The notes below the pieces were generated by a model, which searched no databases, was not told the origin of the DNA, and was given only the letters and a program-made list of their open reading frames with translations. Positions 9,971 through 36,350 of a stretch of DNA of 40,299 nucleotides are shown here, piece by piece. Location: the NCBI GenBank assembly GCA_028870355.1, contig JAGWPU010000023.1, positions 1 through 40,299 of the forward strand, in the 5' to 3' direction. The number at the start of each line of letters is the position of its first letter. Position 1 is the first letter of the stretch. This stretch comes from Gammaproteobacteria bacterium (GTDB lineage Bacteria > Pseudomonadota > Gammaproteobacteria > Steroidobacterales > Steroidobacteraceae). The translations under genes were made by a program, and so were the position numbers.

Positions 9971-9975
9971 CGCCG

Positions 9976-10317: not shown

Positions 10318-10330
10318 CGCGTGCCGCCCG

Positions 10331-10630: not shown

Positions 10631-10723
10631 CGGTTCCACGCTACCCGACCCCGCGCCCTGGCCGGGACTGTGGCTTTCCCGTATGCGATTGCGCGAAGCG
10701 CAGCCTGGCGCGCGCGGGATCGA

Positions 10724-10755
10724 GCGGCGCCGACCGGCGCCGCGTTGCGGCGCAA
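10724..10755. promoter_or_regulatory. Inverted repeats in the hupF/lipase divergent promoter region
   Basis: A perfect 8-bp inverted repeat (GCGGCGCC-gacc-GGCGCCGC, 10724-10743) is followed by the 11-base palindrome TTGCGGCGCAA (10745-10755). The second overlaps the candidate -35 of the lipase promoter. No FNR box and no sigma-54 -24/-12 element, which control many hyp operons, was found in the 206 bases between the two start codons. Confidence 0.3.
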
Positions 10756-10773
10756 TTCGCCCGGACGTAGACT
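10745..10773 (+). promoter_or_regulatory. Candidate sigma-70 promoter for the lipase-fabH-like pair
   Basis: TTGCGG (10745-10750) and TAGACT (10768-10773) are separated by exactly 17 bases and sit about 65 bases upstream of the ATG. The hexamers match consensus at 3 of 6 and 4 of 6 positions, so this is only a plausible promoter. Confidence 0.35.
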
Positions 10774-10836
10774 CGGCGAAATGCGGCCGCCCGGGCTCAC
10801 GGTCGGCAGTTCCTATCGACCCCGGGGAGGTTGCCG

Positions 10837-12111: not shown

Positions 12112-12118
12112 AGAACCC

Positions 12119-13231: not shown

Positions 13232-13270
13232 CGCGCGGTTCGGCCGGCGCGCGGTTCAGCCGGCGCGCGG
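13232..13270. repeat. Short tandem duplication at the FabH/HDAC convergent junction
   Basis: Two 16-base copies, CGCGCGGTTCGGCCGG (13232-13247) and CGCGCGGTTCAGCCGG (13248-13263), are followed by a partial third copy CGCGCGG. The unit contains GCCGGCGC and can pair with the adjacent copy. The stop codon of the minus-strand deacetylase gene (13256-13258) lies inside copy two. Confidence 0.6.
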
Positions 13271-14368
13271 CACGCGCGCCGCGAGCGCGGCCGCCGCGTC
13301 GATCACCGCCGCCTGGTGCGGCAGCAGGTCGTGGCCGGCCATCGCCATGAACTCTTCCAGGTACGGATCCGCCGCCGGCGTGCGATGCCGCGCGAATTCC
13401 TCGACGACCGCGAGGCCGCAGAACGGCACGTAGGCGTTCGAATAGCCGCCCTCGTGCAGCGCGACGATCCGCCCCTGGCACAGCGACTCGGCCGCGGCCA
13501 TCACCTGTTTCGCGAGCGCCCGGTAGGTCTCGCTGGTCGCGAGCATCCGGCCGATCGGATCCATCATGTTCGCGTCGAGCCCCGAGCAGATCACGATCAA
13601 TTGCGGGCGGAACCGCTGCAGCGCCGGGATCACCGCGCGCTCGAACGCGGCGACGTAGGCGCCGTGGCCGCTGCCCGGCGGCAACGGCACGTTCAGGTTG
13701 GTGTGCGCGGCGCTCCCTGAGCCGATCACGTCCAGGAACCCGCTGTCCAGCGGGTAGCAGCGGTCCTGGTGCACCGAGATCGTGAGCACGGACGGGTCCT
13801 CCAGGAACGCGAGCTCGGTGCCGTTGCCGTGGTGAACGTCCCAGTCGATGACCGCGATGCGATCGAGCCGGTGCACGCGCTGCGCGTGCTTGATCGCGAT
13901 CACCGCGTTGCCGAACACGCAGTAGCCGCGCCCGCGGTCGGGTTCCGCATGGTGACCGGGCGGCCGCACCAGCGCGTACGCGTTCGCGACCTTGCCGCCG
14001 AGCACCGCATCGACCGCCTCGATGCAGCCGCCGGCCGCGAGGCGCGCGATGTCGAAGCTGCCGTGGCCGATCGTCGCGCTGTCGCCGATCGTGCCCCCGC
14101 CCGCGGCGGAGAGCACGCGCACCTGCTCGACGTAGCGTTCGGTATGGAACGCGCGGATCTCCTCGATCGTCGCGAGCCGCGCTGCGATCGGCACGAGACG
14201 CTCGGCGAGGCCGCTGACCGCGAGCAGGGACAGCATCCGCCGCTTGGTCGACGGACTCTCCGGATGCGGGTCGGGCTCGACGTAGTCGCTGGACGTGCTG
14301 AAGCCGGCTCCGCTCCCCGGGTCGTGCCAGAAGTATCGTTCGTGAGAGACGAGGCCGGTTGCGTGCAT
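13256..14368 (-). CDS. Class II histone-deacetylase-like amidohydrolase (acetylpolyamine deacetylase family)
   Basis: This is a 370-residue Zn-dependent deacetylase of the arginase/deacetylase fold. Signature residues are present: the double histidine in RPPGHHAE (about residue 142), the zinc Asp and His in DWDVHHGNGT (about 183-192), the second zinc Asp in SGLDANMMDP (about 265), and the catalytic Gly-Tyr in HEGGYS (about 312). Bacterial members remove acetyl or other short acyl groups from polyamines and related amines. ATG 14368 has TGGAG upstream. It is the last gene of a minus-strand set behind two SDRs and a TonB receptor, about 40 bases after the preceding gene. With the amidase and aminotransferase on the other side of the regulator, a role in deacylating an imported amine is likely but not proven. 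Confidence 0.88.
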   Translation of the reverse strand: MHATGLVSHERYFWHDPGSGAGFSTSSDYVEPDPHPESPSTKRRMLSLLAVSGLAERLVPIAARLATIEEIRAFHTERYVEQVRVLSAAGGGTIGDSATIGHGSFDIARLAAGGCIEAVDAVLGGKVANAYALVRPPGHHAEPDRGRGYCVFGNAVIAIKHAQRVHRLDRIAVIDWDVHHGNGTELAFLEDPSVLTISVHQDRCYPLDSGFLDVIGSGSAAHTNLNVPLPPGSGHGAYVAAFERAVIPALQRFRPQLIVICSGLDANMMDPIGRMLATSETYRALAKQVMAAAESLCQGRIVALHEGGYSNAYVPFCGLAVVEEFARHRTPAADPYLEEFMAMAGHDLLPHQAAVIDAAAALAARVPRAG

Positions 14369-14408
14369 CGTGGGGTCACTCCAGTCGGAACGGGTTCGCG
14401 CTCGCGGG

Positions 14409-15176
14409 TCAATAGCCCGCGGTCAATCCAAAGTCGATCGGGATCGCCGCGCCGGTGATCGGCGCGGCCTGTGGCGACGCCAGGTAATGGACGAATTCGG
14501 CGATCTCCTCGGCGGTCGCGAACCGCGCACGCTCCCGCTGCGGGTAGCGGGCGAGCAGGTTCGCCTTGTAGCGGGCGGGGTCGCCGCCGCCGTAGGTCGC
14601 CGCCTGGAACTCGATCATCGGCGTCGCGACGTCGCAGGGGCAGACCGCATTCACGCGCACGCCGCGCGGTGCGAGCTCGAGCGCGAGCGAGCGCGACAGC
14701 AGCACGACGCCGCCCTTCGAGGCGCTGTACACGCTCGCGCCGGCGTTGCCGACGAGGCCGGCGTCCGAGGCGAGGTTCACGATCGCGCCGCCGGTGCGCT
14801 CGAGATGCGGGATCGCGTGCCGGCACACGAAGAACGTGCCTTTCAGGTTCACCGCGAGCACGCGGTCGAACTCGGCTTCGGTCACCCGCTCGGCCGCTCC
14901 TTCGAGCCAGACGCCGGCGCAGTTCACGACCACGTCGAGGCCGCCGAACTCGGCGACCGTGCGCTCGACGAGATCTGCGCAGGCCGGCGGGCTCGCGACG
15001 TCGACCGGCACCGCGAGGACCTCGGGTCCGCCACCGAGCATCGCGACCGCCGCGTCGAGCGCCGCGCGATCGCGATCGGCGATCGCGACGCGCTCCCCGG
15101 CCTCGCGGAAGCGCCGCGCGATCGCGAGGCCCATCCCGCTCGCGCCGCCCGTGATCAGTACCGTACGCCGGGACAT
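14409..15176 (-). CDS. Short-chain dehydrogenase/reductase (SDR)
   Basis: This is a 255-residue classical SDR. The N-terminal TGGASGMG coenzyme motif starts at about residue 9. An acidic residue at the end of beta-2 (AIADRD) favours NAD(H) over NADP(H). NCAG lies at about residue 85. The catalytic set is Ser in NLASDAG and YSASK at about residue 153. The C-terminus ITGAAIPIDFGLTAGY is typical for SDRs acting on secondary alcohols or ketones. It lies 17 bases downstream of another SDR in the same direction; the two share the fold but differ clearly in sequence, suggesting two successive redox steps or different substrates. The substrate is not identifiable. Confidence 0.9.
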   Translation of the reverse strand: MSRRTVLITGGASGMGLAIARRFREAGERVAIADRDRAALDAAVAMLGGGPEVLAVPVDVASPPACADLVERTVAEFGGLDVVVNCAGVWLEGAAERVTEAEFDRVLAVNLKGTFFVCRHAIPHLERTGGAIVNLASDAGLVGNAGASVYSASKGGVVLLSRSLALELAPRGVRVNAVCPCDVATPMIEFQAATYGGGDPARYKANLLARYPQRERARFATAEEIAEFVHYLASPQAAPITGAAIPIDFGLTAGY

Positions 15177-15193
15177 CGCTCGCACGCCGCTGC

Positions 15194-15970
15194 TCAGCCG
15201 CGATCCGGCGAGCGACCCTTGATTTCCTGGAGGATGTTGCCGCCGTCGACCACGAGCGTCTCGCCGTTCACGTAGCTCGCGCCGGCGGACGCGAGGAACG
15301 CGACCGCGTGCGCGACCTCCGCCGGGGTGCCCGGTCGGCCGACCGGCGTCTGCGTGCCCGCGGCGAGTTCGGCGGCGCTCGAGGAGGCGGTCGCGATCCA
15401 GCCCGGGGCGACCGCGTTCACCGTGACGCCGTGCGGGCCGGCCTCGAGCGCGAGGGCACGCGTCAGGCCGACCATGCCGGCCTTCGCGGCGCCGTACGCC
15501 GAGGACCCCAGGATCGCGACGTACGGCCCGGTGACCGACGCGACGTTCACGACCCGACCGTAGCGGGTGGCGATCATCGCCGGCAGGAACGCGCGGGTCG
15601 CCGAGAACGCGGTCTTCAAGGTGACCGCGATCATCCGGTCCCACTCGTCCTCGGCGAAATCGACGAACGCCTTGCTGACCGCCGGCTCGCCGACCGCTCC
15701 CATCCCCGCGTTGTTCACGAGGACCGACACCGGTCCGATCTCCCCGGCGAGCGCGCGCGCCGCCGAGAGGTCGGTCAGGTCCGCGACCGCCGCGTCCACC
15801 GCGTGGCCGCGCTCGCGCAGTTCCGCCGCGCGCTCGTGCACGCGCGCGGTCGTGCTGGTGATCGCGACCCGCATCCCCGCGGACGCGAGCCGCTCGGCGA
15901 TCGCGAATCCGATCCCGGTCGCGGACCCGGCGCCGGTGACCAGCGCATCGACGCGCGTCGTGCCGCTCAC
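15194..15970 (-). CDS. Short-chain dehydrogenase/reductase, 3-oxoacyl-ACP reductase-like
   Basis: This is a 258-residue SDR with start GTG 15970. The glycine motif is TGAGSATGIG (residues about 12-21), NNAG lies at about residue 89, the catalytic Ser is in NVASVTG and the Tyr-Lys pair is in YGAAK (about 159). The C-terminal YVNGETLVVDGGN is the FabG-type ending. The Ser after beta-2 (AITSTTAR) suggests NADPH preference. It sits 25 bases after the TonB receptor stop and before the second SDR. A role in the same catabolic unit is inferred from position; a FabG-like lipid role cannot be excluded. Confidence 0.9.
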   Translation of the reverse strand: MSGTTRVDALVTGAGSATGIGFAIAERLASAGMRVAITSTTARVHERAAELRERGHAVDAAVADLTDLSAARALAGEIGPVSVLVNNAGMGAVGEPAVSKAFVDFAEDEWDRMIAVTLKTAFSATRAFLPAMIATRYGRVVNVASVTGPYVAILGSSAYGAAKAGMVGLTRALALEAGPHGVTVNAVAPGWIATASSSAAELAAGTQTPVGRPGTPAEVAHAVAFLASAGASYVNGETLVVDGGNILQEIKGRSPDRG

Positions 15971-15995
15971 ACCGCGCTCCCGGCGATGTCCGGCA

Positions 15996-18407
15996 TCAGA
16001 ACCGGTACGACGCCGTCACGCCGATGGTTCGCGGCTGATAGCCACGCGCGAAGTAGTTCGTGTCGAAGTTCGGCGGGAAGCCGTTCAGCGGCGTCGTCGC
16101 CAGGTCGCGCGCGAGGAACAGCGGGCTGTGGAAGTTCGTCAGGTTGTGGACCCACAGCATCACGTCCCAGCCGCCGAAGTACATGCCGGCACGAAGATTC
16201 AGCACGCTGACCGTAGGCAATCCCGGCAGCGTCGGATCGTCGTTCGGCGCGTTCGCCGGATCCTGATACGGCTGCAGCGAGTTCTGTGCGGTCGAGAACT
16301 GGTATTCGGCGCGCAGGTACGGCCGGTGCGGCAGCGAGTGCCACTCGTAGCTCAGGTTCGCCTCGACGTTCCACGGCGCGCTCGGCAGGTGATCGCCCGC
16401 GGTCACCAGCGGGTACACCCCGGCGAGCGACACGTTGGTCGTGAACGCCGAGTCCGTGTAGGCGCCGGTCACGCCGACCGTGAGGTCCTCGGTCGGCCGC
16501 CAGTTGATCGCGACGTCGCCGCCCTTGCCGGTCACGGACCCGAGGTTGTAATCGAAGCCGAGGCCGCAGGTCAGGTAGACGAACTGCTGGATGTTGTTCC
16601 ACTTGAGGTAATAGATCGACGCGCTGATCTCGAGGCGGTTGCGGAACAGCGTGTTCTTCGAGCCGAGCTCGTATTGCCACAGCGAATCGGACGCGTACGA
16701 CGGCGGCTGTTGCGGGAGCCCGTACGAGCAGTTCTGCGGCAAGGCCGCGTTGATACCGCCCGGCCGGAAGCCCTTCGCCGCGCTGACGTAGTACAGGCTG
16801 TTGCTCGTCGGCTTGTAGTTGATCACGAAGCGTGGCGTGACCGGGTTGCCGCTGCCGGTGTTGGTGCTCTTGATCCCCGTGCCCACGATCAGCGCGCCGC
16901 TCTCGTTGATCACGCCGGTGTAGGTCAGGTGCGAGTAGCGCAGGCCCGCGGTCGCCTTGATCTTCGGCGTGATCTTGTAGGACAGCTCGCCGTAGACCGC
17001 GACCTGTTTGTCGAGCATCGAGAACTGCGGCTGATGGTACGCATTGCCCGGATCCGCCGGGCTGATGTCGGCACTGACGATATGCTCGGTCGAGTTCTCA
17101 TGCACGTGCGCATAATAGACGCCGGCAGTCCACTGGAAGCGGCTCGCCTCGTTCGACGAGCTCGCGCGCCACTCCTGCGTGAAATTGTCCTGCCGGTCGG
17201 TGAAGTACGCGCTGCTGAAATCGTTCGGCGCGGTGTACTGGTTGTACAGGAAGATCGTCGGCGCCCACTGCGAGTAATCCGAAATCGAATGCTGGGCGCG
17301 CGAGAAGTACGAGGTGTTCGAGGTGAACTGCACGCCGGGCAGGCTCCACTCGACCTTCACCGCGCCGATGTACCAGGGGTCGGTGCTCGGGTTGCGCTGC
17401 AGGTTGCCGTTGTTGTAGTCGTTGCGTGACGGCACCGACAGATTGCGCCAGTACACCGCGGTGTCGTTGATGTGCAGGGTCTGCACGTAGAACGACGGCA
17501 GGATCGAGAAGTTGTCGTTCGGCTGCCACTTGAGCGCCGCGCGGAAGGTCGCCGAGTCCTGCCAGTTCGCGTTCGCCTCGGTCGTGCCGGTGATCGTCGG
17601 CGAGCCGGTGTACACGGTCGCGGGCGCGGTGCCGTAGCAGGGCGTGCAAGTGATCAGGGTGCTCGGCGGCGGCGCGTAAGCGACGCGATTCACCCAGCCG
17701 CCGTCGTGGCGGATCGACGCGCTCACGCGGAACCCGAGCTTGCCGTCGATGATCGGTCCGCCGAACGCTGCGCCGGCCGCGTAGTCGTTGCCGCCGCCGT
17801 CGATCTCGCCGAAATCGGCGCGCGCGAAGCCCGAGTAGCGGTGCAGCCCCGGATCCGGCGTGATGAAGCGGACCGTGCCGCCCTCGGATCCGGCGCCGAA
17901 CAGCGTGCCCTGTGGGCCCTTGAGCACCTCGACCCGCTCCAGATCGAAGAGCTGCGGATACGCCATCACCGTGCCGAAGTTCAGGTGACGCCCCTGGATC
18001 GGCGTGTCGTCGATGTAGATGCCCGTGGTCGAGGCACCGGCATTCGAGTCGACACCGCGAATCGCGATATCGGAGTCCTCGTCGTTGTAGTTGCCGGACA
18101 CGCTCGTGCCGTTGCGCTGGAACGTGATGCCCGGCGCGACGCGCGCGAGATCGTCGATCGTGTGCAGCTGTTGCTGCTGGAGCGCCTGTCGTCCGAACGC
18201 GGTCACGCTCATCGGCACGTCCATCAGGCGCTCGGTGCGTCGCTCGGCCGTGACGACGACCTGTTGCAGTTGATCCCCGGCCTGGGCCGACGCGTTCGTC
18301 GCGTCGTTGGTCTGGGCCGCGGCGAGACCGATCGCAAGCGCGCAGCTGACGCCCGACGCGACGCCGAGCCTGCGCGCGCGAGCCCAATCGAGACGGTGAT
18401 GGTTCAT
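15996..18407 (-). CDS. TonB-dependent outer-membrane receptor
   Basis: This is an 803-residue outer-membrane receptor. A signal peptide spans residues about 1-36, with a hydrophobic stretch ending in AIGLAAAQ. A TonB box-like QQVVVTAERR follows. The plug domain contains DVPMSVTAFG, DDLARVAPGITFQR, IAIRGVD, IYIDDTPIQG, LERVEVLKGPQGTLFGAGSEGGTVRFIT. A 22-strand barrel follows and ends in the aromatic SYRF outer-membrane signature. ATG 18407 is chosen over GTG 18422 because GAGGA lies nine bases upstream. The plug is of the type common in sphingomonad and Steroidobacter-like receptors for large organic substrates; the sequence does not say iron or carbon source. It immediately follows the Lrp regulator gene and precedes the SDR pair, so it likely imports the substrate of this unit. 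Confidence 0.93.
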   Translation of the reverse strand: MNHHRLDWARARRLGVASGVSCALAIGLAAAQTNDATNASAQAGDQLQQVVVTAERRTERLMDVPMSVTAFGRQALQQQQLHTIDDLARVAPGITFQRNGTSVSGNYNDEDSDIAIRGVDSNAGASTTGIYIDDTPIQGRHLNFGTVMAYPQLFDLERVEVLKGPQGTLFGAGSEGGTVRFITPDPGLHRYSGFARADFGEIDGGGNDYAAGAAFGGPIIDGKLGFRVSASIRHDGGWVNRVAYAPPPSTLITCTPCYGTAPATVYTGSPTITGTTEANANWQDSATFRAALKWQPNDNFSILPSFYVQTLHINDTAVYWRNLSVPSRNDYNNGNLQRNPSTDPWYIGAVKVEWSLPGVQFTSNTSYFSRAQHSISDYSQWAPTIFLYNQYTAPNDFSSAYFTDRQDNFTQEWRASSSNEASRFQWTAGVYYAHVHENSTEHIVSADISPADPGNAYHQPQFSMLDKQVAVYGELSYKITPKIKATAGLRYSHLTYTGVINESGALIVGTGIKSTNTGSGNPVTPRFVINYKPTSNSLYYVSAAKGFRPGGINAALPQNCSYGLPQQPPSYASDSLWQYELGSKNTLFRNRLEISASIYYLKWNNIQQFVYLTCGLGFDYNLGSVTGKGGDVAINWRPTEDLTVGVTGAYTDSAFTTNVSLAGVYPLVTAGDHLPSAPWNVEANLSYEWHSLPHRPYLRAEYQFSTAQNSLQPYQDPANAPNDDPTLPGLPTVSVLNLRAGMYFGGWDVMLWVHNLTNFHSPLFLARDLATTPLNGFPPNFDTNYFARGYQPRTIGVTASYRF

Positions 18408-18422
18408 GGTCCGCGTCCTCAC

Positions 18423-18935
18423 TTAACTGACCGAATAGGTGAACGTGTGCTTGTAGGTGCCGAGGTACATCAGGATCACGGCGTCGGCGACCTCGCCGAG
18501 CGAGCGGATCTTCTCGTTGGTCACGCGCAGCAGCTGCTCGTGGCTTTCGCAGACGAGTTCGGCGATCACGTCGTACGGCCCGGCGGTCGCGACCACGTAG
18601 ATCGACTCGGGGAGCGCGGCGATCGCCTTCGCGATCCGGCGCGAGTCGCCGCGCGCCTTGATCCCGATCAGCGCCATCGACTTCGAGCCGAGCCGCACCG
18701 GATCCGTGACCGCCGCGATCTGCATCACCCCGCGGGCGAGCAGGCGCTGCACGCGCTGGCGCGCCGCGGCCTCCGACAGTCCCACCCGCGCGCCGATCTT
18801 GCCGTACGCCATCCGGCCGTCCTTCTGCAGCGCGCGCACGATCGCGCGATCGATCGCATCAAGTGTCAGCGGGCGGGCGCGAGTGCTCGTCGGGGAGTGT
18901 GCGACTGAAATCGTTGTCTCCGGGGCGTTTTGCAA
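18423..18935 (-). CDS. Lrp/AsnC-family transcriptional regulator
   Basis: This is a 170-residue regulator. The winged helix-turn-helix starts at LTLDAIDRAIVRALQKDGRMAYGKIGARVGLSEAAARQRVQRL (residues about 23-66). An RAM ligand-binding domain follows (KSMALIGIKA..., IYVVATAGPYDVIAELVC, about 83-150). The frame has no ATG before the HTH; the only usable initiation codon is TTG 18935, giving a 22-residue extension before the usual family start. The TTG lies inside a CAACG-N5-CGTTG palindrome, so the protein may bind over its own start. The receptor gene begins within a few bases of its stop, and the divergent aminotransferase gene starts about 150 bases away. It most likely senses an amino acid or amine and controls both directions. 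Confidence 0.9.
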   Translation of the reverse strand: MQNAPETTISVAHSPTSTRARPLTLDAIDRAIVRALQKDGRMAYGKIGARVGLSEAAARQRVQRLLARGVMQIAAVTDPVRLGSKSMALIGIKARGDSRRIAKAIAALPESIYVVATAGPYDVIAELVCESHEQLLRVTNEKIRSLGEVADAVILMYLGTYKHTFTYSVS

Positions 18936-18948
18936 CGAAATCCGTTGT
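18907..18948. promoter_or_regulatory. Candidate Lrp operator: repeats GAAATC(C)GTTGT and CAACG palindrome
   Basis: GAAATCGTTGT (18907-18917) and GAAATCCGTTGT (18937-18948) are direct repeats whose starts are 30 bases apart, close to three helical turns. The second copy is part of the perfect inverted repeat CAACG-aaatc-CGTTG (18933-18947), a 15-base symmetry typical for Lrp/AsnC sites. Two further GTTGTCG elements follow, at about 18949 and 18975. Confidence 0.55.
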
Positions 18949-18974
18949 GTTGTCGGGGAGCGACATCTATTCTA
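18945..18974 (+). promoter_or_regulatory. Candidate promoter with -10 shared by both strands
   Basis: On the plus strand TTGTGT (18945-18950) and TATTCT (18968-18973) are 17 bases apart. On the minus strand the same bases read TAGAAT (18974-18969), a 5 of 6 match to a -10. The only AT-rich stretch between the divergent genes is thus readable both ways and is flanked by the repeats above. Confidence 0.4.
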
Positions 18975-19088
18975 GTTGTCGACGGACTGTAGTCGCGGTG
19001 GCGGGTGCTGTCAACGCCGCGATGCGCCGGCGCAAGGCCGGTGGCGTGGACGTGCGCGGGGTCGAAGCCACTGTGGGGGAGAGACGGA

Positions 19089-20480
19089 GTGAATTCAGCG
19101 GCGATTTCCGGCGGAACGGGGCGGTCGATCGATCGCGAGCGCCTGCAGCGGCTGCATGCGCGTGAATTGGACGCGTTCGCGAACGCGCATCCGCGCTCGC
19201 GCGCGCTGCACGAGCGGGCCCGGGCGTCGATGCTCGGCGGCGTGCCGATGCCGTGGATGGCGCGCTGGCCTGGCGGCTTCCCGGTGTACGCGGCGAGCGC
19301 GACGGGTTCGCGGATCGTCGACGTCGATGGCCACGCGTACGTGGACCTGTGCCTCGGCGACACCGGTGCGATGGGCGGTCACAGCCCGGCGGCGATGGTC
19401 GAGGCGGTGCGTGCGCAGCTCGGGCACGGCACGACGATGATGCTGCCGACCGAGGCGAGCGTCGGCGCGGCGGAGAATCTCGCGCGCCGGTTCGGCGTGC
19501 GCTACTGGCAGTTCACGCTGTCCGCGACCGACGCGAACCGCACCGCGCTGCGCCTCGCGCGCCAGATCACCGGACGGCCGCTGGTGGTCGTGCACAGTTA
19601 CTGCTACCACGGCACCGTCGACGAGACCTTCGCGGTCCGCGCGCCGGACGGCGCGACCCGCTCGCGCGAGGGCAACGTCGGTCCCGCGGTCGATCCGGCG
19701 GCGACGACGCGCGCGGTCGAGTTCAACGACGTCGGACAGCTCGAGGCCGCGCTCGCGGACGATGCGGTCGCGTGCGTGATCGCCGAGCCGGCGTTGACCA
19801 ACATGGGGATCGTGCTGCCCGAGCCGGGCTATCACGAGGCCTTGCGCTCGCTCACGCGCCGTCACGGCACGCTGCTGCTGATCGATGAGACGCACACGTT
19901 CTCGGCCGGGTACGGCGGCTGCACCCGGGCCTGGGGGCTCGAGCCCGATCTCGTGACGATCGGCAAGTCGATCGGCGGCGGCGTTCCGTGCGGGGCGCTC
20001 GGGATGAGTGCCGAGGTCGGGCGCCGGATCGCGGCGCAGGAGGGCGTCGACTACGAGGACACCGGCGGCGTCGGCGGCACGCTCGCGGGCAACGCGCTGT
20101 CGGCGGCCGCGATGCGCGCAACGCTCGAGGAGGTGCTCACCGAGGCCGCGTTCGGGCGCATGATCGGTCTCGCCGGGGAGTTGCAGCGCTCCATCGCGCG
20201 CACGATCGAGTCGCGACGGCTGCCGTGGAATGTCGTGCAGCTCGGATGCCGCGTCGAGTACGGCTTCCTGCCGAGCCCGGCCCGCAACGGGACGACCGCG
20301 AAGGCGGGCGCGGACCGGGACCTCGAGGCGTACCTGCACCTGTACCTGCTGAATCGCGGCGTGCTGATCACGCCGTTCCACAACATGGTGTTGATGTCCC
20401 CGTCGACGACGGCCGAGGACGTCGCAGCCCACGATCGCGGCTTCGCGGCGGCGATCGACGAGTTACTCGGCACGGACTGA
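19089..20480 (+). CDS. Class III (glutamate-1-semialdehyde aminomutase-like) aminotransferase
   Basis: This is a 463-residue PLP-dependent aminotransferase. GTG 19089 is chosen because GGGGGAGAG lies directly upstream; the frame is open further, to 19005, without support. The PLP lysine is Lys293 in TIGKSIGGGVPCGALG, the ring-pairing aspartate is in LLIDETHTFSAGYGG, and the stacking aromatic is in CYHGTVDE. Odd point: where most class III enzymes have (S/N)xG(S/T)EA for the phosphate cup, this protein has LSATDANRTALRLAR. That marks a divergent subfamily. It is the first gene of the rightward set, followed by an amino-acid permease and an amidase. It probably removes or moves the amino group of the pathway substrate. 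Confidence 0.88.
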   Translation: MNSAAISGGTGRSIDRERLQRLHARELDAFANAHPRSRALHERARASMLGGVPMPWMARWPGGFPVYAASATGSRIVDVDGHAYVDLCLGDTGAMGGHSPAAMVEAVRAQLGHGTTMMLPTEASVGAAENLARRFGVRYWQFTLSATDANRTALRLARQITGRPLVVVHSYCYHGTVDETFAVRAPDGATRSREGNVGPAVDPAATTRAVEFNDVGQLEAALADDAVACVIAEPALTNMGIVLPEPGYHEALRSLTRRHGTLLLIDETHTFSAGYGGCTRAWGLEPDLVTIGKSIGGGVPCGALGMSAEVGRRIAAQEGVDYEDTGGVGGTLAGNALSAAAMRATLEEVLTEAAFGRMIGLAGELQRSIARTIESRRLPWNVVQLGCRVEYGFLPSPARNGTTAKAGADRDLEAYLHLYLLNRGVLITPFHNMVLMSPSTTAEDVAAHDRGFAAAIDELLGTD

Positions 20481-20519
20481 GTCGAGGCGCCGCCGAAGGC
20501 CTCGCGGAACGAACGGACC

Positions 20520-21836
20520 ATGGAGCCACTCAAGCGCACGCTGAAGTACTGGGACCTGGTCCTGTACGGACTTGCGTACATCGCGCCGATAACGCCGTTC
20601 TCGACCGTCGGGTTCGTCTGGGACGCCTCGAAGGGGCTGATCGCGCTCGCCTACGTGCTCGGCGGCGTGTGCATGTTCTTCACCGCGAAGAGTTACGCCG
20701 TGATGAGCGAGACGACCCCGTCCGCGGGCTCGGTCTACGGGTTCGCGCGCCATGCGATCGGGGTGTTTCCCGGGTTCGTCGCCGGCTGGATGATCCTGCT
20801 GGACTACCTGCTGATCCCGGCGTTCGTGTTCGTGCTGATCGCGGTCGCGCTCGGCACGCTGGTGCCGTCGGTCGACCGTTCCGTGTGGATCGTGCTGATG
20901 GTCGCGTTCACGCTCGGGATCAACTGGTTCGGCGTGACCGTGACGACGCGCGCGAATTTCGTCGCGGTCGCGATCCAGACGGTGGTCACCGTCGGCTTCG
21001 TTGCGCTGTGCGTGATCGCGATCGCGCACGGCAAGGGCAACGGCGCGCTCACCTTGAAGCCGTTCTGGAACCCGCAGACGTTCGACGGCGGCGCGCTGCT
21101 GACCGCGACCTCGATCTGCGTGATGTCGTTCCTCGGCTTCGACGCGATCTCGACGCTGTCGGAAGAAGTCGTCGGCGACGATCCGGGCCTGATCGGCCGC
21201 GCGATCATCGGCGTGCTGGTGATCTCCGGGGCGTTCTTCGTGCTGGTCGCGTGGGTGCTCGGCAATCTGCTGCCCGGGATCGCGTTGCACGATCCCGCGG
21301 CCGCGATCTACGAACTCGCCGCCTGGGCGGTCGGACCCTGGGCCTCGAGCGTGATCGCGTGGACCTACGTGCTCGTGATCGGCCTGTCGAACGCGATCCC
21401 GATGCTGATCGGCGTCGCACGCGTGCTCTACGCGATGGGCCGGGACCGGCAGCTGCCCGGAACGCTCGCGCGGGTCCATCCGCGCTACCACACCCCGTAC
21501 GTCGGCATGCTCACCGCGTCGGGGATCTCGCTCGCCGTCGCGCTCGCGATGCGCAACCGGCTCGGAGATCTCGCGACGATCGTGAACTTCGGCGCGCTGT
21601 GCGGATTCCTGATGCTGCACGTCTCGGTGCTGGTCGAGTTCGTCTGGCGGCGCCGCTCGCGCCGCTGGCTGGTGCACTGGGTGACACCGGTGCTCGGGAT
21701 TGCGGTCGTGCTGATGGTGCTCTCGGGGATGAGCCGGCTCGCGCTGATCGTCGGCTCGACCTGGCTCGCGGCCGGGTGCCTCTGGGGACTCGCGCTGCAC
21801 ACCCGCCGGCGCGCGAAGCTCGCGATCGAACTGTAA
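20520..21836 (+). CDS. APC-superfamily amino acid/amine permease
   Basis: This is a 438-residue inner-membrane transporter with about 12 predicted membrane helices. The N-terminal LKYWDLVLYGLAYIAPITPFSTVGFVW is the TM1 region of APC permeases, with the unwound GLAYIAP ligand site. SEETPSAGS-like residues (SETTPSAGSVYGFAR) form TM2, and CVMSFLGFDAISTLSEE is the TM6 signature. The ATG at 20520 has only a weak GGAACG upstream. It lies 39 bases after the aminotransferase and 45 bases before the amidase, in the same direction. It likely carries an amino acid, polyamine or related amine across the inner membrane as part of the pathway fed by the divergent TonB receptor. Confidence 0.92.
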   Translation: MEPLKRTLKYWDLVLYGLAYIAPITPFSTVGFVWDASKGLIALAYVLGGVCMFFTAKSYAVMSETTPSAGSVYGFARHAIGVFPGFVAGWMILLDYLLIPAFVFVLIAVALGTLVPSVDRSVWIVLMVAFTLGINWFGVTVTTRANFVAVAIQTVVTVGFVALCVIAIAHGKGNGALTLKPFWNPQTFDGGALLTATSICVMSFLGFDAISTLSEEVVGDDPGLIGRAIIGVLVISGAFFVLVAWVLGNLLPGIALHDPAAAIYELAAWAVGPWASSVIAWTYVLVIGLSNAIPMLIGVARVLYAMGRDRQLPGTLARVHPRYHTPYVGMLTASGISLAVALAMRNRLGDLATIVNFGALCGFLMLHVSVLVEFVWRRRSRRWLVHWVTPVLGIAVVLMVLSGMSRLALIVGSTWLAAGCLWGLALHTRRRAKLAIEL

Positions 21837-21881
21837 CGAGGCGGGCGGCCGGGGTAGCGCCGCCGCCGGAGGGGCGAACCG

Positions 21882-23339
21882 ATGACCGATGAGCTTTGTT
21901 ACCGTTCCGCGGGCGAATCGATCCGCGCGTTCCGCGCGGGCGAGAGCTCGCCGGTCGAGCTGATGCGCGCGGTGCTCGAGCGGGCCGAGCGGCAGACGGC
22001 GAGCTTGAACGCGACGACCGCGATCCATGCGGAGGCGGCCCTCGCGGCCGCGAGCGCCGCTGAGGCGCGCTACCGGGCGGGGACCGCGCGGCCGCTCGAG
22101 GGCATCCCGGTCGCGATCAAGGAGGAGACCTCGGTCGCGGGCTGGCGCAAGACGATCGGCTCGTTCCTGTGGGACGAGGTGCCGACCGCGCACCACCCGA
22201 TGGTCGACAAGCTGATCGCGGCCGGTGCGATTCCGCACCTGCAGACCAGCGTGCCGGAGTTCTGCCTGATCGGCCAGACACTGTCGCGCCGCTACGGGGT
22301 GAGCCGCAACCCCTGGAATCCGGCGATCACGCCGGGCGGTTCGAGCGGCGGGTCGGGGGCGGCGCTCGCGGCCGGGATGGCACCGCTCGCGACGGGGAGC
22401 GATATGGCCGGCTCGATCCGGATCCCGGCGGCGATGTGCGGCGTGTACGGGTTCAAGCCGCCGTTCGGACGTCTCGCGAGCGCGCCCGGCGAGGAGCTGT
22501 TCGCATTCGCGGTCGAAGGGCCGATGGCGCGCACGGTCGAGGATCTCGCGTTGATGCAGAACGTGATCGCCGGGCCGCACCCGGCGACCTATTCCGGGAT
22601 GCCGTACGTGCCGCTGCCGGCCGAGCCCGCTGCGATCGCCGGCCTGCGGATCGGCCTGTCGTTCACGACCGGGCACACCACGCTGTGTCCGGACACCCGC
22701 CGCAATCTCGAGCGCGCCGGCGCGGCGCTCGAACGCGCCGGCGCGATCATCGAACCGGTCGACCTGCGCTGGGACGGCGAGGCGCTCGCCAACGCGCTGA
22801 TCGAGGCGATCTTCGGAATCTTCCTCGACGAGTATCTCTCGAAGCTGCCGGCCGAAAAGCTCGACCAGGGCAGCTCGTACCTGCGCTGGCTGATGGAACG
22901 CTACTGCGGCAAGCGCAATTCGATCACCAAAGCCGCCGGACTCGCGCTCGGCCTGCACCAGGAACTCGAACACAAGCTCTGGGGCCGGGGGATCGCGGCC
23001 CTGATCTGCCCGACGGTGTTCGCGACCGACATCGCCGCCGATCTCGACCTCGCGAGCGTGCGCGAGGTGCCGATCGGGGACACGCGGGTCGACAGCTACC
23101 TCGGCTGGGTCGCAACGCCGCCGTTCAACCTGCTGAGCCGATACCCGGCGCTCGCCGCGCCGACCGGACTCGCGGCGAACGGGGTCCCGACCAGCCTGCA
23201 GATCGTGGGTCCTGCGTTCGACGATGCGATCGTGTTCCGGATCGCACACCACTTCGCGCGAGTCACCGACGGCGGCCTCTACCGGCGCCACTTCCCGCCA
23301 GGCTGCGGAGTCGACGGCGGGCGCACCGAACGGTTATAA
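21882..23339 (+). CDS. Amidase-signature-family hydrolase
   Basis: This is a 485-residue amidase. The Ser-cisSer-Lys triad reads as Lys80 (VAIKEET), cis-Ser at 154/155 in PGGSSGGSG, and nucleophile Ser178 in GSDMAGSIRIPA, with the usual 23-24 residue gap between the serines. GSDMAGS replaces the more common DTGGS, a modest deviation near the oxyanion hole. GGAGG is placed eight to ten bases before the ATG. It hydrolyses an amide bond, probably in the cytosol since no signal peptide is present. Next to the APC permease and aminotransferase, and with an HDAC-like deacetylase in the opposite operon, it suggests the unit deals with amide- or N-acyl-linked compounds. Confidence 0.92.
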   Translation: MTDELCYRSAGESIRAFRAGESSPVELMRAVLERAERQTASLNATTAIHAEAALAAASAAEARYRAGTARPLEGIPVAIKEETSVAGWRKTIGSFLWDEVPTAHHPMVDKLIAAGAIPHLQTSVPEFCLIGQTLSRRYGVSRNPWNPAITPGGSSGGSGAALAAGMAPLATGSDMAGSIRIPAAMCGVYGFKPPFGRLASAPGEELFAFAVEGPMARTVEDLALMQNVIAGPHPATYSGMPYVPLPAEPAAIAGLRIGLSFTTGHTTLCPDTRRNLERAGAALERAGAIIEPVDLRWDGEALANALIEAIFGIFLDEYLSKLPAEKLDQGSSYLRWLMERYCGKRNSITKAAGLALGLHQELEHKLWGRGIAALICPTVFATDIAADLDLASVREVPIGDTRVDSYLGWVATPPFNLLSRYPALAAPTGLAANGVPTSLQIVGPAFDDAIVFRIAHHFARVTDGGLYRRHFPPGCGVDGGRTERL

Positions 23340-23366
23340 AGAGGCAAACAACCGAACGGGGGAGTC

Positions 23367-24761
23367 GTGGAACACCCAGGAAAGGACCTCGCGGCGGCCG
23401 CGTCGGCGCGACGTTACATGCGCTACGTCGCCGTGCTCGCGGCGCTCGCGGGACTGATGTTCGGCCTCGACGTCGGCGTGATCTCGGGCGCCCAGCAGTT
23501 CATCCAGCGAACCTTCGCGATCGACGACCGGATGATCGAGCACATCGTGAGCAGCATGATGGTCGGCGCGGCGGTCGGCGCGGGGCTCGCCGCCTGGCTG
23601 TCGGGACACTTCGGGCGCAAGCGCTCGCTCCTGTGGAGCGCGTCGCTGTTCGTCGCCGGGTCGCTCGCGAGCGCGGCCGCGGGGTCGCCGGTCGCGCTGA
23701 TCGGCGCGCGCCTCGTGCTCGGCGTCGCGATCGGGATCGCGGCATTCACCGCGCCGCTGTACCTCGCCGAGATCGCTCCGGAGGACAAGCGCGGCGCGAT
23801 GATCTCGACCTACCAGTTGATGATCACGATCGGGATCTTCCTCGCGTTCGTGTCGGACACGGTGTTCAGCTACTCCGGACGCTGGCGCTGGATGCTCGGG
23901 ATCATCGCGGTCCCGGGCATCGCGTTCCTGCTCGGGGTGCTCGGCCTGCCGGAGAGCCCGCGCTGGCTCGTGCTGCGCGGCCGGCACGACGACGCGACCG
24001 GCGTGCTGAACCGGTTGCGCGGCGACGAGACGACCGCGCGCGCCGAAGTCGCGGAGATCGAGGAGCGCCTGCGGACCCCGCAGCAAGGCTGGCAGCTGCT
24101 GCGCGAGAACCGCAACTTCCGCCGTTCCGTCGGCCTCGGAATCGCGCTGCAGGTGGTGCAGCAACTCACCGGCATCAACATCGTGATGTACTACGCGCCG
24201 CGGATCTTCGCCGACATGGGCTACGCGACCGGTACGCAGATGCTGTTCACCGCGGTCGTCGGGCTGACCAACGTGCTCGCGACGTTCATCGCGATCGGCT
24301 TCGTCGACCGCATCGGGCGCAAGCCGATCCTCTATGCCGGCTTCGTGGTGATGGCGGTCGGTCTCGCGGTGGTCGGCACGCTGATGGCGTCCGGAATGGC
24401 GACTCAGGGGCAACGATTGCTCGCGGTCGCGATGCTGCTGGTGTTCGTGATCGGCTTCGCGTTCTCGGCTGGCCCGCTGGTGTGGACGCTGTGCTCGGAG
24501 ATCCAGCCGCTCAAGGGGCGGGATTTCGGCATCGGCGTCTCGACGGTGACGAACTGGCTCGGCACGGCGGCGGTCGGCGCGACGTTCCTCACGCTGCTGA
24601 ACCACCTGGGTCACGCGCAGACGTTCTGGTTGTACGCCGCGTTCAACGCGTCGTTCCTGCTGTTCACCTGGGCGTTCGTTCCCGAGACCAAGGGCGTGAG
24701 CCTCGAGGCGATCGAGCGGCGGCTGATGGACGGGCGCGCGCTACGGGAGATCGGGGAATGA
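23367..24761 (+). CDS. Sugar-porter family MFS transporter
   Basis: This is a 464-residue, 12-helix major facilitator of the sugar porter family (GalP/AraE/XylE type). Family motifs present: GLMFGLDVGVISGA in TM1, SGHFGRKRSLL (loop 2-3), LPESPRWLVLRG after TM6, FVDRIGRKPILYAG (loop 8-9) and VPETKGVSLEAIE after TM12. The start is GTG 23367 just behind GGGGGAG; spacing is short, and ATG 23418 without a Shine-Dalgarno is the alternative. It follows the amidase by 27 bases and overlaps the DUF481 gene by ATGA. A sugar porter at the end of an amine/amide set may export or import a sugar-like part of the substrate, e.g. of a glycosylated or amino-sugar compound. That is speculation. Confidence 0.92.
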   Translation: MEHPGKDLAAAASARRYMRYVAVLAALAGLMFGLDVGVISGAQQFIQRTFAIDDRMIEHIVSSMMVGAAVGAGLAAWLSGHFGRKRSLLWSASLFVAGSLASAAAGSPVALIGARLVLGVAIGIAAFTAPLYLAEIAPEDKRGAMISTYQLMITIGIFLAFVSDTVFSYSGRWRWMLGIIAVPGIAFLLGVLGLPESPRWLVLRGRHDDATGVLNRLRGDETTARAEVAEIEERLRTPQQGWQLLRENRNFRRSVGLGIALQVVQQLTGINIVMYYAPRIFADMGYATGTQMLFTAVVGLTNVLATFIAIGFVDRIGRKPILYAGFVVMAVGLAVVGTLMASGMATQGQRLLAVAMLLVFVIGFAFSAGPLVWTLCSEIQPLKGRDFGIGVSTVTNWLGTAAVGATFLTLLNHLGHAQTFWLYAAFNASFLLFTWAFVPETKGVSLEAIERRLMDGRALREIGE

Positions 24762-25570
24762 GGGGCCGGTACGTCGGCGGCGATCGAATCAGGCGCCCCA
24801 GCGGAATCCTCCGGCCCGCGATCGCGTCGCTCGCGCTGCTGCTGTCGCCGGCCGCCGCCTTTTGCGCGTCGGCTGCGGCGCCGGCGCCGGACGGCTGGAG
24901 CGGCAAGGGCCAGGCCGGCGGCGTGACCTCGCAGGGCAACACGCAATCCACGACGTTCAATGCGGTGCTGGATCTCGCGCTCGTCGCGGGCCCGTGGAAG
25001 CACGCGTTGCACCTCGACGGCCTGTACGGGCGCAATGCGGGCATCACCTCGAGCGAGCGCTGGGGATCCCGGTGGCAGAGCGACTACACGTTCCGACCGG
25101 CGGTGTACGCGTTCGGGATCCTGCGTTACGAGCGGGACCTGTTCAGCGGCTTCGACTATCAGGCGAGCGCGGCCGCCGGCGTCGGCTACCGGATCCTCGA
25201 CACCGACCGGGTGAAGCTCAGCGTGCAGGCGGGGCCCGGGTTTCGACGCGAACAGCCGCAGACCCTCAGCAAGGACGCGGCCGGCGCGGTGATCGCGCGC
25301 AGCCTGGGAACTCCGATGAACAGCGCGATCCTGAGTGCCGGGATCGATTACTCGCAGGTGCTCACCGCCACGACGACCCTGTCGGACAAACTGCTGACCG
25401 AGTCGGGTGGCGGCAACACGCTCGTCACGAACGCGCTGGCGCTCGCGGTCAAGGTGTCGACGCACCTCGCCTTGAGCGTCGGCTACAATCTGCAGAACAA
25501 CAGTTCGCCGCCGCCGGGACTGAAGAAGCTCGACTCGAACGAGACGGTGAACCTGGTGTATTCCTTCTAG
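24758..25570 (+). CDS. DUF481-family outer-membrane protein
   Basis: This is a 270-residue exported beta-barrel protein. A signal peptide spans residues about 1-38, with a hydrophobic IASLALLLSPAAAFCASA. The mature part begins with GWSGKGQAGGVTSQGNTQSTTFN, the DUF481 start, in which a salt-induced outer-membrane protein pattern of alternating beta strands follows to the terminal NLVYSF. ATG 24758 overlaps the MFS stop (ATGA). It is the last gene of the rightward set. Function in the family is poorly known. Its stop uses the same CTAG as the convergent methyltransferase. Confidence 0.88.
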   Translation: MRGRYVGGDRIRRPSGILRPAIASLALLLSPAAAFCASAAAPAPDGWSGKGQAGGVTSQGNTQSTTFNAVLDLALVAGPWKHALHLDGLYGRNAGITSSERWGSRWQSDYTFRPAVYAFGILRYERDLFSGFDYQASAAAGVGYRILDTDRVKLSVQAGPGFRREQPQTLSKDAAGAVIARSLGTPMNSAILSAGIDYSQVLTATTTLSDKLLTESGGGNTLVTNALALAVKVSTHLALSVGYNLQNNSSPPPGLKKLDSNETVNLVYSF

Positions 25571-36210: not shown

Positions 36211-36236
36211 ACGTAGCGGCATGCGTTGCGGTGGGC

Positions 36237-36346: not shown

Positions 36347-36350
36347 CAGG

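What the first reader, a model, noticed from the sequence alone, without database searches (positions are those of the whole stretch)
13256..25570. Candidate new catabolic island for an N-acylated amine, under an Lrp-type regulator
A TonB receptor, two SDRs, an HDAC-like deacetylase, a class III aminotransferase, an APC permease, an amidase, a sugar porter and a DUF481 protein flank one Lrp/AsnC gene in two divergent sets. Two amide-cleaving enzymes, a transaminase and two dehydrogenases form a logical chain: import, deacylation, transamination, redox. I do not recognise this set as a described pathway.
Basis: inference. Interest (0 to 1): 0.75.

Follow-up and report, generated by a model that had tools for sequence, protein, structure and literature searches.

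The report
Conserved gene island for breaking down amines
A real, conserved block of bacterial genes, probably used to strip an acyl group from an unknown amine and oxidise what is left, whose core sits beside two different types of the same enzyme in related bacteria and resembles an unexplained gene group in Pseudomonas.

Summary
All the genes are present: a left set AsnC-TBDT-SDR2-SDR1-HdaH and a right set AT-APC-amidase-sugar porter-DUF481, divergent over one intergenic region. The set is not chance. SDR2-SDR1-HdaH with a PRK07046 aminotransferase recurs in 6 of 23 genomes of the genus (own included), not always at the same site, and in three genomes of another genus. Sugar porter, DUF481, amidase and TonB receptor look like local additions. 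'N-acylated amine' remains inference. The deacetylase scores with HdaH enzymes such as propanil hydrolase, far above a polyamine deacetylase, which weakens the acetylpolyamine idea. New facts: HdaH and SDR1 of the two genera each form one group, but the neighbouring aminotransferases do not (AU p 1.6e-5): one genus uses an AsnC-linked type without GS, the other a type next to a gamma-glutamylputrescine-synthetase-like gene. The SDR pair, with its G-X5-G-I-G SDR, also occurs with AT+GS in probable Pseudomonadaceae (a layout recalled for PA5521-PA5525) and with a gamma-glutamyltranspeptidase in a third genus. Best reading: a vicinal amino alcohol is freed from an amide, oxidised and deaminated. 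Substrate unknown.

The parts
13256..14368 (-). HdaH: class II HDAC-fold Zn amidohydrolase; core
   Evidence: PF00850 E 2.9e-84; best single-domain PDB match propanil hydrolase 9gku E 3.9e-105, then HDAH 5g0x 5.7e-101 and dimethoate hydrolase 9gkw 3e-100; acetylpolyamine amidohydrolase 6phr 2e-32; catalytic residues invariant in 7 of 7 rows
14409..15176 (-). SDR1: short-chain dehydrogenase, standard G-X3-G-M-G, YxxxK; core
   Evidence: PF13561 E 1.3e-56; 8-row alignment, 66-86% identity to the window; motifs
15194..15970 (-). SDR2: short-chain dehydrogenase with the unusual G-X5-G-I-G cofactor motif, YxxxK; core
   Evidence: PF13561 E 6.2e-51; motif in 8 of 8 rows and in SDR2-type partners elsewhere; the same motif type is reported for P. 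aeruginosa PA5524
15996..18407 (-). TonB-dependent receptor, probable outer-membrane importer; accessory (5 of 6 island genomes of the genus)
   Evidence: PF00593 E 1.9e-27, PF07715 3.5e-20; absent from the G013 locus
18423..18935 (-). AsnC/Lrp-type regulator (the ORF start at 18935 is mechanical; the true start may be internal)
   Evidence: PF13404 E 4.6e-16, PF01037 3.9e-10; no NCBIfam cut-off reached
18933..18947 (.). Inverted repeat CAACG-AAATC-CGTTG, candidate AsnC operator in the divergent control region; overlaps the mechanical AsnC start by 3 bases
   Evidence: Conserved in 5 of 6 aligned loci incl. window, decayed in G002; only copy in the own genome at <=1 mismatch, control pattern 0
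19089..20480 (+). AT: class III (HemL-like) aminotransferase of subfamily PRK07046, AsnC-linked type; core
   Evidence: NF005453 633 bits vs cut-off 425; hemL 228 vs 527; nearest PDB 5ykr; tree
20520..21836 (+). APC-type amino acid/amine permease; near-core (also paired with HdaH alone in two other genomes of the genus; not beside AT in G013)
   Evidence: PF00324 E 3.6e-30; APC-HdaH pairs in G008 and G021
21882..23339 (+). Amidase-signature amidase; accessory
   Evidence: PF01425 E 1.9e-79; no NCBIfam cut-off reached among the 25 shown
23367..24761 (+). Sugar-porter MFS transporter; accessory of the nearest relatives
   Evidence: PF00083 E 6e-121; TIGR00879 411 bits vs cut-off 237.8
24758..25570 (+). 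DUF481 protein; accessory, absent in G006
   Evidence: PF04338 E 7.2e-47; synteny

Best explanation
The island is a catabolic unit that takes up a small amine compound carrying an amide bond. The HdaH amidohydrolase (with the amidase, in the window's nearest relatives) cleaves the amide and frees a vicinal amino alcohol or related hydroxy-amine. The two SDRs oxidise its hydroxyl group(s), giving an alpha-amino carbonyl. The HemL-like aminotransferase removes the nitrogen. APC and the TonB receptor import; the AsnC protein switches both divergent operons from one palindrome. Shown: the genes, their order, the conserved core, the palindrome, the family of each enzyme, and that the same HdaH-SDR1-SDR2 core is paired with two different aminotransferase types of one subfamily, which argues that transamination is part of the pathway. 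Inferred: the substrate class, the order of steps, the direction (breakdown rather than synthesis), import, operon structure and the role of AsnC. The specific substrate is not known.
For: Conserved core in two genera, and not always at the same site within the genus. HdaH of g1+g13 lies on one side of a branch (SH-aLRT 99) and so does SDR1 (89, weaker), but the adjacent ATs do not (AU p 1.6e-5). HdaH scores with the group that holds small-molecule amidohydrolases. AT is a HemL relative, whose known chemistry is on a vicinal amino-carbonyl (established knowledge of GSAM), but the stretch aligned with GSAM's PVR reads PWM, with W56, M57 and D91 kept at >=90% in both AT clades; this fits an amine lacking the GSAM carboxylate (inference). 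Both SDRs accompany HdaH and AT in all nine core genomes seen, six of g1 and three of g13 (HdaH cut short in G013, set split over contigs in G022 and G006). In other lineages the same SDR pair stands with AT plus a gamma-glutamyl-amide-synthetase-like gene (AT and GS at 6 of 9 f21 SDR1 loci) or with a gamma-glutamyltranspeptidase (7 of 8 g23 loci): an amide-handling enzyme is a recurrent partner. Precedent: the S. coelicolor ethanolamine cluster pairs an SDR and aldehyde dehydrogenase with a gamma-glutamylethanolamide synthetase and a predicted amidohydrolase.
Against: No aldehyde dehydrogenase, oxygenase or other downstream enzyme is in the island to complete a catabolic route. A window-type AT (72%) stands alone in G030, with none of the core beside it (L038), and HdaH stands with APC alone in G008 and G021, so the parts can also live apart. 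The HdaH sub-cluster also contains protein lysine deacetylases, so HdaH need not act on a metabolite. SDR substrates cannot be read from sequence. In P. aeruginosa, loss of PA5524, which shares the SDR2 motif type, or of PA4089, the SDR beside another AT of the subfamily, changed none of the carbon sources tested. Operator and promoter are sequence inference only; the promoter-like hit (1 found) is no more than shuffles give (0.7).
Confidence: 0.4

Rival explanations
1. Acetylpolyamine catabolism: HdaH deacetylates acetylated polyamines, and AT and the dehydrogenases degrade the freed polyamine.
For: The genus g13 locus L051 adds a PauB/PuuB-like FAD oxidase (name recalled; best NCBIfam model L-pipecolate oxidase, below cut-off) and a PRK07480 omega-aminotransferase beside the core. 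AT lies directly next to a gamma-glutamylputrescine-synthetase-like gene in 26 of 33 f1/f4 loci outside the window type. PA5522/PA5523 and PA4088 are listed in a table of changes in spermine-NONOate-treated P. aeruginosa biofilm (passage; that treatment also releases NO).
Against: HdaH scores 355-327 bits with HdaH-type chains but falls to E 2e-32 with acetylpolyamine amidohydrolase 6phr; a survey found bacterial polyamine deacetylases only in its cluster 4. The window island has no GS, FAD oxidase or aldehyde dehydrogenase, and the GS relatives elsewhere in its genome are 33-36% identical to the g13 one. Polyamines have no hydroxyl for two SDRs.
Confidence: 0.15
2. The amide is made by the cell: the ancestral pathway gamma-glutamylates an amine (GS), oxidises it with the SDRs and hydrolyses the gamma-glutamyl amide (GGT in g23). 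HdaH took over the hydrolase step in g13 and g1; g1 works without, or lost, the GS.
For: AT-GS adjacency (26 of 33); SDR2-SDR1-GGT in 7 of 8 g23 loci; GS with HdaH together in g13; gamma-glutamylation precedents in PMC6529630 and PMC11335346 (passages).
Against: No close relative of the AT-linked GS in the six island genomes of the genus (best match in each 35-37%). No HDAC-fold enzyme is known to me as a gamma-glutamyl amide hydrolase (recalled). GGT is usually exported (recalled).
Confidence: 0.2
3. HdaH is a protein lysine deacetylase that controls the neighbouring enzymes, and the metabolic route is amine oxidation without any N-acyl substrate.
For: The survey's sub-cluster 1b includes true lysine deacetylases such as KpHdaH, and PA3774 is cited as one.
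Against: HdaH pairs with an APC permease alone in G008 and G021. Other HdaH relatives lie near amidases in 11 of 80 loci, against 1 of 33 AT loci used as a rough control; not significant by itself, and the locus lengths differ.
Confidence: 0.12
4. Arylamide or xenobiotic breakdown of the propanil/dimethoate type.
For: Nearest single-domain PDB relative is propanil hydrolase, with HDAH 5g0x and dimethoate hydrolase close behind.
Against: No oxygenase or ring-cleavage gene in the island; HdaH and the SDRs have diverged to 64-72% identity between two genera, which looks too old for a recent xenobiotic adaptation; AT and two SDRs are not obviously needed for anilines.
Confidence: 0.06

Closest known systems
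P. aeruginosa PA5521-PA5525 group (uncharacterised; gene order partly recalled)
   Same: Probable Pseudomonadaceae loci show an AT of the same NCBIfam subfamily PRK07046 (L190), an SDR1 orthologue and GS, mostly with an SDR2-type and a GntR gene. SDR2 has the G-X5-G-I-G motif reported for PA5524.
   Different: The window has no GS or GntR, an AT of another clade, and adds HdaH, APC, AsnC, TBDT and amidase. PAO1 itself was not searched here.
S. coelicolor gamma-glutamylethanolamide (GlnA4) ethanolamine cluster
   Same: Logic: amino alcohol, amide, SDR-type oxidation, predicted amide hydrolysis, transporter and regulator (passages).
   Different: There the amide is made by GlnA4 and an aldehyde dehydrogenase follows; the window has an HDAC-fold hydrolase and an aminotransferase and no GlnA4-type gene.
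Sub-cluster 1b HdaH enzymes (DmhA, PrpH, KpHdaH; PA3774 resembles them)
   Same: Best single-domain matches of the window HdaH; RPPGHH and EGGY motifs.
   Different: Those were studied as single enzymes; in the passages read no metabolic gene cluster is given for them.
Puu/Pau polyamine catabolism
   Same: Gamma-glutamyl-amide theme in relatives; APC permease.
   Different: No GS, FAD oxidase, aldehyde dehydrogenase or PuuD-type hydrolase in the window island.
P. aeruginosa PA4087-PA4092 type locus (MoaF-AT-SDR-DUF2218-HpaBC; L158; the PA numbers are recalled except PA4088 and PA4089)
   Same: AT on the same side of the deep split as the window's, next to an SDR.
   Different: Aromatic hydroxylase and MoaF neighbours, no HdaH; its SDR is not an SDR1 orthologue (36%, long branch).
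Fumonisin catabolic cluster of Sphingopyxis (recalled, not tested here)
   Same: TonB receptor, dehydrogenase and class III aminotransferase acting on a 2-amino-3-hydroxy compound.
   Different: Carboxylesterase rather than an HDAC-fold amidase; no sequence comparison was made.

Membership tests
HdaH, sub-cluster 1b | Scores best with 1b enzymes among solved relatives | tested here: met
   9gku (propanil hydrolase), 9gkw (dimethoate hydrolase), and 5li3, 5g0x, 9glb, 1zz0 (HdaH-type; that these are PA3774, KpHdaH and FB188 is recalled) all E <= 2e-96; 6phr 2e-32. Two-domain HDAC6 chains score higher in sum but about 180 bits per domain. No tree with named cluster members was built
HdaH, sub-cluster 1b | RPP motif and EGGY motif, Zn ligands | tested here: met
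   R135 P136 P137 G138 H139 H140; D175, D177, H179, D265; E306 G307 G308 Y309 invariant in 7 of 7; motif list, ligand roles recalled
HdaH, sub-cluster 1b | L1-loop tetramer | not testable with these tools
   Oligomer state not computable here; no model was built
Bacterial polyamine deacetylase (cluster 4 ApaH) | Groups with cluster 4 enzymes | tested here: not met
   E 2e-32 with acetylpolyamine amidohydrolase 6phr against <=2e-96 with HdaH-type chains; that 6phr is cluster 4 is recalled
GSAM/HemL (glutamate-1-semialdehyde aminomutase) | Curated score reached | tested here: not met
   228 bits against cut-off 527
GSAM/HemL (glutamate-1-semialdehyde aminomutase) | Conserved Arg of the PVR stretch that binds the substrate carboxylate (role recalled) | tested here: not met
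   PVR aligns with PWM in two GSAM alignments; W56 and M57 kept at >=90% in 12 clade-A and 42 clade-B rows
PRK07046 transaminase subfamily | Curated score reached | tested here: met
   633 bits against cut-off 425
AT-GS-SDR-SDR module (PA5521-PA5525 type) | SDR1 orthologue plus SDR2 with G-X5-G-I-G | tested here: met
AT-GS-SDR-SDR module (PA5521-PA5525 type) | GS-like gene next to AT | tested here: not met
   0 of 7 window-type loci against 26 of 33 other f1/f4 loci
Puu/Pau polyamine catabolism | Gamma-glutamylpolyamine synthetase and FAD oxidase in the locus | tested here: not met
   Gene content
Lrp/AsnC regulators | AsnC HTH plus ligand domain | tested here: met
   PF13404 and PF01037 above cut-off

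The most novel reading that the evidence does not exclude
An undescribed bacterial pathway in which N-acylated vicinal amino alcohols (possibly lipid-like ones such as ceramides or other sphingoid amides, taken up by a TonB receptor) are opened by an HDAC-fold amidohydrolase, oxidised to alpha-amino ketones by a paired SDR set, and deaminated by a HemL-like transaminase. The same SDR core has been fitted with two different HemL-like aminotransferase modules (AsnC-linked, or GS-linked) and with three alternative amide-handling enzymes (HdaH, GS, GGT). It would also give a function to the orphan P. aeruginosa PA5521-PA5525 genes.
Probability: 0.2. Interest if true: 0.7.

Novelty: new variant of a known kind. 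Interest (0 to 1): 0.45.

Why it matters
HDAC-fold enzymes of the HdaH kind are common in bacteria and, as far as I recall, mostly without a known natural substrate. Here one sits in a conserved metabolic unit, which narrows its substrate to something two SDRs and a HemL-like transaminase can finish. The SDR pair and transaminase link the island to HemL-like paralogues in P. aeruginosa (PA5523, PA4088), of which PA5523's role is called undetermined in print. A growth screen on amino alcohols, amines and their amides could settle both at once. That one core is joined to two separate transaminase types is a natural experiment on how catabolic pathways are assembled.

Tried and rejected
Acetylpolyamine substrate: weakened by the HdaH scores. 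Heme or glutamate-semialdehyde role for AT: rejected by score and by the PVR/PWM change. Sugar utilisation: the sugar porter is present in only 3 island genomes seen. Pantothenate and chloramphenicol breakdown were considered from memory and not tested, having no sequence lead. Fumonisin-type pathway: the one paper search gave no bacterial cluster paper in the 8 rows shown of 122. Variovorax VAI-C (L156), a Burkholderiales MAG (L135) and P. delhiensis (L133) carry HdaH with SDRs, and L156 and L135 also an AT of this family. I first took them for the same module and withdrew that: the SDRs of L133 and L156 (and L158) are long branches outside the SDR1 group, and that of L135 did not reach the 100-bit limit. 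HdaH-amidase association (11 of 80 loci) is suggestive only. Class Gammaproteobacteria is inferred, and f21 as Pseudomonadaceae too (SDR1 of P. delhiensis L252 groups with three f21 rows at SH-aLRT 99). No tree of SDR2 or APC was built and no structure was predicted.

Rows dropped before counts: of 46 genomes with an AT match (own included) regions were fetched for 39 of the 45 others (G033, G038, G040, G052, G084 and G085 not fetched). In one search the AT fragment of L040 was left out because the same gene is split over contigs (L039 kept). L044 (435 bp downstream) stays in the 33 as a miss. In 'adjacent' means within 700 bp on the same strand: GS lies after AT in 23 and before it in 3 (L060, L062, L072). 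In one search matches under 150 bits (HDAC) or 100 bits (SDR1) were dropped, and HdaH loci L115-L152 were left out except L133 and L135. The clade tested by AU was defined by synteny, but the test was run after the tree had been seen.

Full report
OBSERVATION. All ten genes are present and above Pfam cut-offs. The left set, read leftwards, is AsnC, TonB receptor, SDR2, SDR1, HdaH; the right set is AT, APC permease, amidase, sugar porter, DUF481. Both begin at one intergenic region of about 150 bp. The outer ends meet convergent genes on both sides: a 3-oxoacyl-ACP synthase III-like gene ending at 13231 and a CMAS-type methyltransferase ending at 25567. GC content in 2 kb steps is 0.65-0.73 over the island and 0.69-0.73 outside it; the lowest value, 0.654, is at 16-18 kb, mostly within the TonB receptor gene. 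The own genome has two further HDAC-family genes elsewhere.

CONSERVATION IN THE GENUS. An AT of the window type (identity 76% or more) occurs in 6 of 23 genomes of the genus, own included. In the window, G016 and G002 AsnC, TBDT, SDR2, SDR1 and HdaH lie beside AT on one contig. In G022 and G006 the set is split over two contigs (C145/C144 and C31/C6). In G013 the order AT // AsnC-SDR2-SDR1-HdaH is seen without TBDT, with HdaH cut by the contig end and a cation-efflux gene after AT instead of APC. Amidase was seen in 4 genomes (window, G016, G022, G006), the sugar porter in 3 (window, G016, G006), DUF481 in 2 (window, G016); in G006 the methyltransferase follows the sugar porter directly. The contigs of G002 and G022 end before some of these genes could be seen. 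The 3-oxoacyl-ACP synthase III-like neighbour is present at 74% identity or more in 15 of 23 genomes, and next to the island in four (window, G016, G006, G022). In nine other genomes with room to look on the island side (L228-L235, L242; 3.5 kb or more) no island gene follows it, apart from a 24% TonB-receptor match in L235. In G002 the island has 5.6 kb on its HdaH side without that neighbour (L036), which lies on another contig (L238). So the unit has stayed together while its place changed at least once. G008 and G021 carry HdaH (69 and 71%) and APC (67% each) as a convergent pair without the rest. An AT of 72% identity stands alone in G030 of genus g9 (L038).

OTHER GENUS. Three genomes of genus g13 (G069, G034, G053) hold HdaH, SDR1, SDR2, APC and an AT within about 6 kb, at 59-72% identity to the window apart from AT at 47-51%. 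There AT is followed by a glutamine-synthetase-like gene whose best NCBIfam model is gamma-glutamylputrescine synthetase, well below its cut-off (L051, L047). L051 adds a PauB-like FAD oxidase and a PRK07480 omega-aminotransferase. G053 has a TonB receptor, 33% identical over part, about 4 kb away.

TWO AMINOTRANSFERASES, ONE CORE. A tree of 55 ATs splits deeply. One side (13 rows) holds the window type, a Streptomyces plasmid AT that also lies next to an Lrp/AsnC gene (L157), and ATs of the PA4088 and Variovorax kind; none has GS adjacent. The other side (42 rows) has GS adjacent in 35. In the f1/f4 families GS is adjacent to AT in 26 of 33 loci outside the window type (after it in 23, before it in 3), and in 0 of 7 window-type loci. 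The g13 ATs are on the GS side. Forcing the seven core-linked ATs into one clade is rejected (log-likelihood 438 lower, AU p 1.6e-5; group defined by synteny, tested after the tree was seen), while HdaH (10 rows against 45, SH-aLRT 99) and SDR1 (8 against 25, SH-aLRT 89, short search) of the same loci are each one side of a branch. The simplest account is that the AT was exchanged, with its own partner gene, around a constant core. Two separate pairings of the core with an AT of one subfamily speak for a joint function.

THE SDR PAIR ELSEWHERE. SDR1 orthologues at E <= 1e-75 were found in 16 of 296 genomes of the order and 10 of 398 drawn from the phylum (own genome counted in both). In genus g23 the order is SDR2-SDR1-GGT in 7 of 8 loci (L188 lacks GGT; the GGT family was shown for one, L186), and three g23 AT loci show omega-AT, PauB-like, GS and AT genes together (L060, L062, L072). 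In class family f21, very likely Pseudomonadaceae, AT and GS accompany SDR1 in 6 of 9 loci and an SDR2-type gene does in 7 of 9. P. delhiensis (L252, named) shows AT-GS-SDR1 and the GntR gene. In G024 (L185) the pair stands near a contig end with no AT, GS, HdaH or GGT seen. Shinella plasmids carry SDR1-SDR2 beside a D-threonine-aldolase-family gene and RidA. SDR2-type genes carry G-X5-G-I-G in 8 of 8 aligned rows and in all those seen but one weak (35%) match. PA5524 is reported as the one studied P. aeruginosa homologue with that motif. From memory the PAO1 order PA5521 SDR, PA5522 GS, PA5523 AT, PA5524 SDR, PA5525 GntR equals the f21 layout of L190; the passages I read confirm PA5522 as glutamine synthetase, PA5523 as aminotransferase and HemL paralogue, and PA5524 as SDR. 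PAO1 itself was not searched.

ENZYMES. HdaH: see membership test. AT: subfamily PRK07046, 633 bits against cut-off 425; not GSAM (228 against 527). The GSAM stretch PVR reads PWM in the window. W56, M57, W60, D91, W140, R151, H269, K293 and H431 (numbering from 19089) are kept at 90% or more in both clades, so both AT types probably do the same chemistry. Nearest solved structure 5ykr, named only 'probable aminotransferase'. The amidase, SDRs and APC are not assigned: among the rows shown one subfamily cut-off was just reached, by SDR1 (PRK07231, 215.4 bits against 215, 'glucose 1-dehydrogenase'), and no equivalog cut-off. The nearest APC structure is 5oqt at E 1.6e-18.

REGULATION. The palindrome CAACGAAATCCGTTG (18933-18947) is kept in 5 of 6 aligned loci, decayed in G002, and is the only such site in the own genome at one mismatch or less, with 0 control hits. 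It lies between a promoter-like site on the minus strand (19014-18986) and the AsnC coding region, whose mechanical start it overlaps. That promoter hit is not more than shuffles give (1 against 0.7). Shared control by AsnC is thus plausible and untested.

MECHANISM. The recurring parts are an amide-handling enzyme, two SDRs and a HemL-like transaminase. HemL chemistry on vicinal amino-carbonyls, the missing carboxylate-binding arginine (role recalled) and the accompanying SDRs make a vicinal amino alcohol the simplest substrate: freed from an amide by HdaH, oxidised by the SDRs, deaminated by AT. The S. coelicolor ethanolamine cluster is a precedent, partly predicted, for amide plus SDR handling of an amino alcohol (passages). 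GS-like enzymes that glutamylate organic amines are described in PMC11335346 (passages). The step order and substrate are inference, hence confidence 0.4.

LITERATURE. Ten searches listed no paper that I could see describing this gene set, within a library limited to open-licence PMC papers; of the longer lists only the top rows were shown (20 of 39, 15 of 33, 8 of 122). Passages only were read of PMC11532494, PMC6529630, PMC11335346, PMC6558427, PMC13024080, PMC7857532 and PMC5403932; all other papers were seen in listings only. PMC13024080 lists PA5522 (4.23), PA5523 (5.50) and PA4088 (2.27) as the first of two values in a table of changes relative to untreated biofilm; I did not see its column headings.

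Noticed in passing
L153, L154 (Shinella plasmids), around 13800-19300: SDR1-SDR2 orthologues form a run with a D-threonine-aldolase-family PLP enzyme, RidA, a flavin reductase and an LLM monooxygenase beside siderophore uptake genes; L154 also has a FAD oxidoreductase.
   Followed up: partly
L156 (Variovorax VAI-C), L135, L050 (G007, same genus): A recurring ALDH, omega-AT (PRK07481 in L135), HAD, Tm-1-like protein, PRK07046-type AT and SDR set, with HdaH in L156 and L135: another unexplained amine-type cluster with a related AT.
   Followed up: partly
L158 around 9150-17240 (PA4087-PA4092 type): MoaF, PRK07046 AT, SDR, DUF2218 and HpaBC lie together, with a 2,4'-dihydroxyacetophenone dioxygenase family gene near by; may suggest breakdown of phenolic amino alcohols.
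   Followed up: no
L056 1002-3020 and L236 6241-8280: A molybdopterin oxidoreductase (formate dehydrogenase-like in L056; similar start sequence in L236, not scanned) stands directly before APC in two genera.
   Followed up: no
L237 1976-4030, L047 6675-8684: An Amidohydro_3 family protein (scanned in L047) lies next to HdaH in G008 and near the core in G069, 61% identical between them.
   Followed up: no
L157 10004-11837: On a Streptomyces plasmid the AT nearest to the window's among the plasmid hits (55%) is followed by an Lrp/AsnC gene, so the AT-AsnC pairing crosses phyla.
   Followed up: partly
window 12119-13231: The 3-oxoacyl-ACP synthase III-like gene beside the island is at 74% or more in 15 of 23 genomes of the genus; in G024 (L185) its homologue also lies about 2 kb from an SDR1-SDR2 pair.
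   Followed up: partly
window 36069-38252 and 33596-35866: A second TonB receptor and a PAS-GGDEF diguanylate cyclase further right in the window, with no sign of belonging to the island.
   Followed up: no
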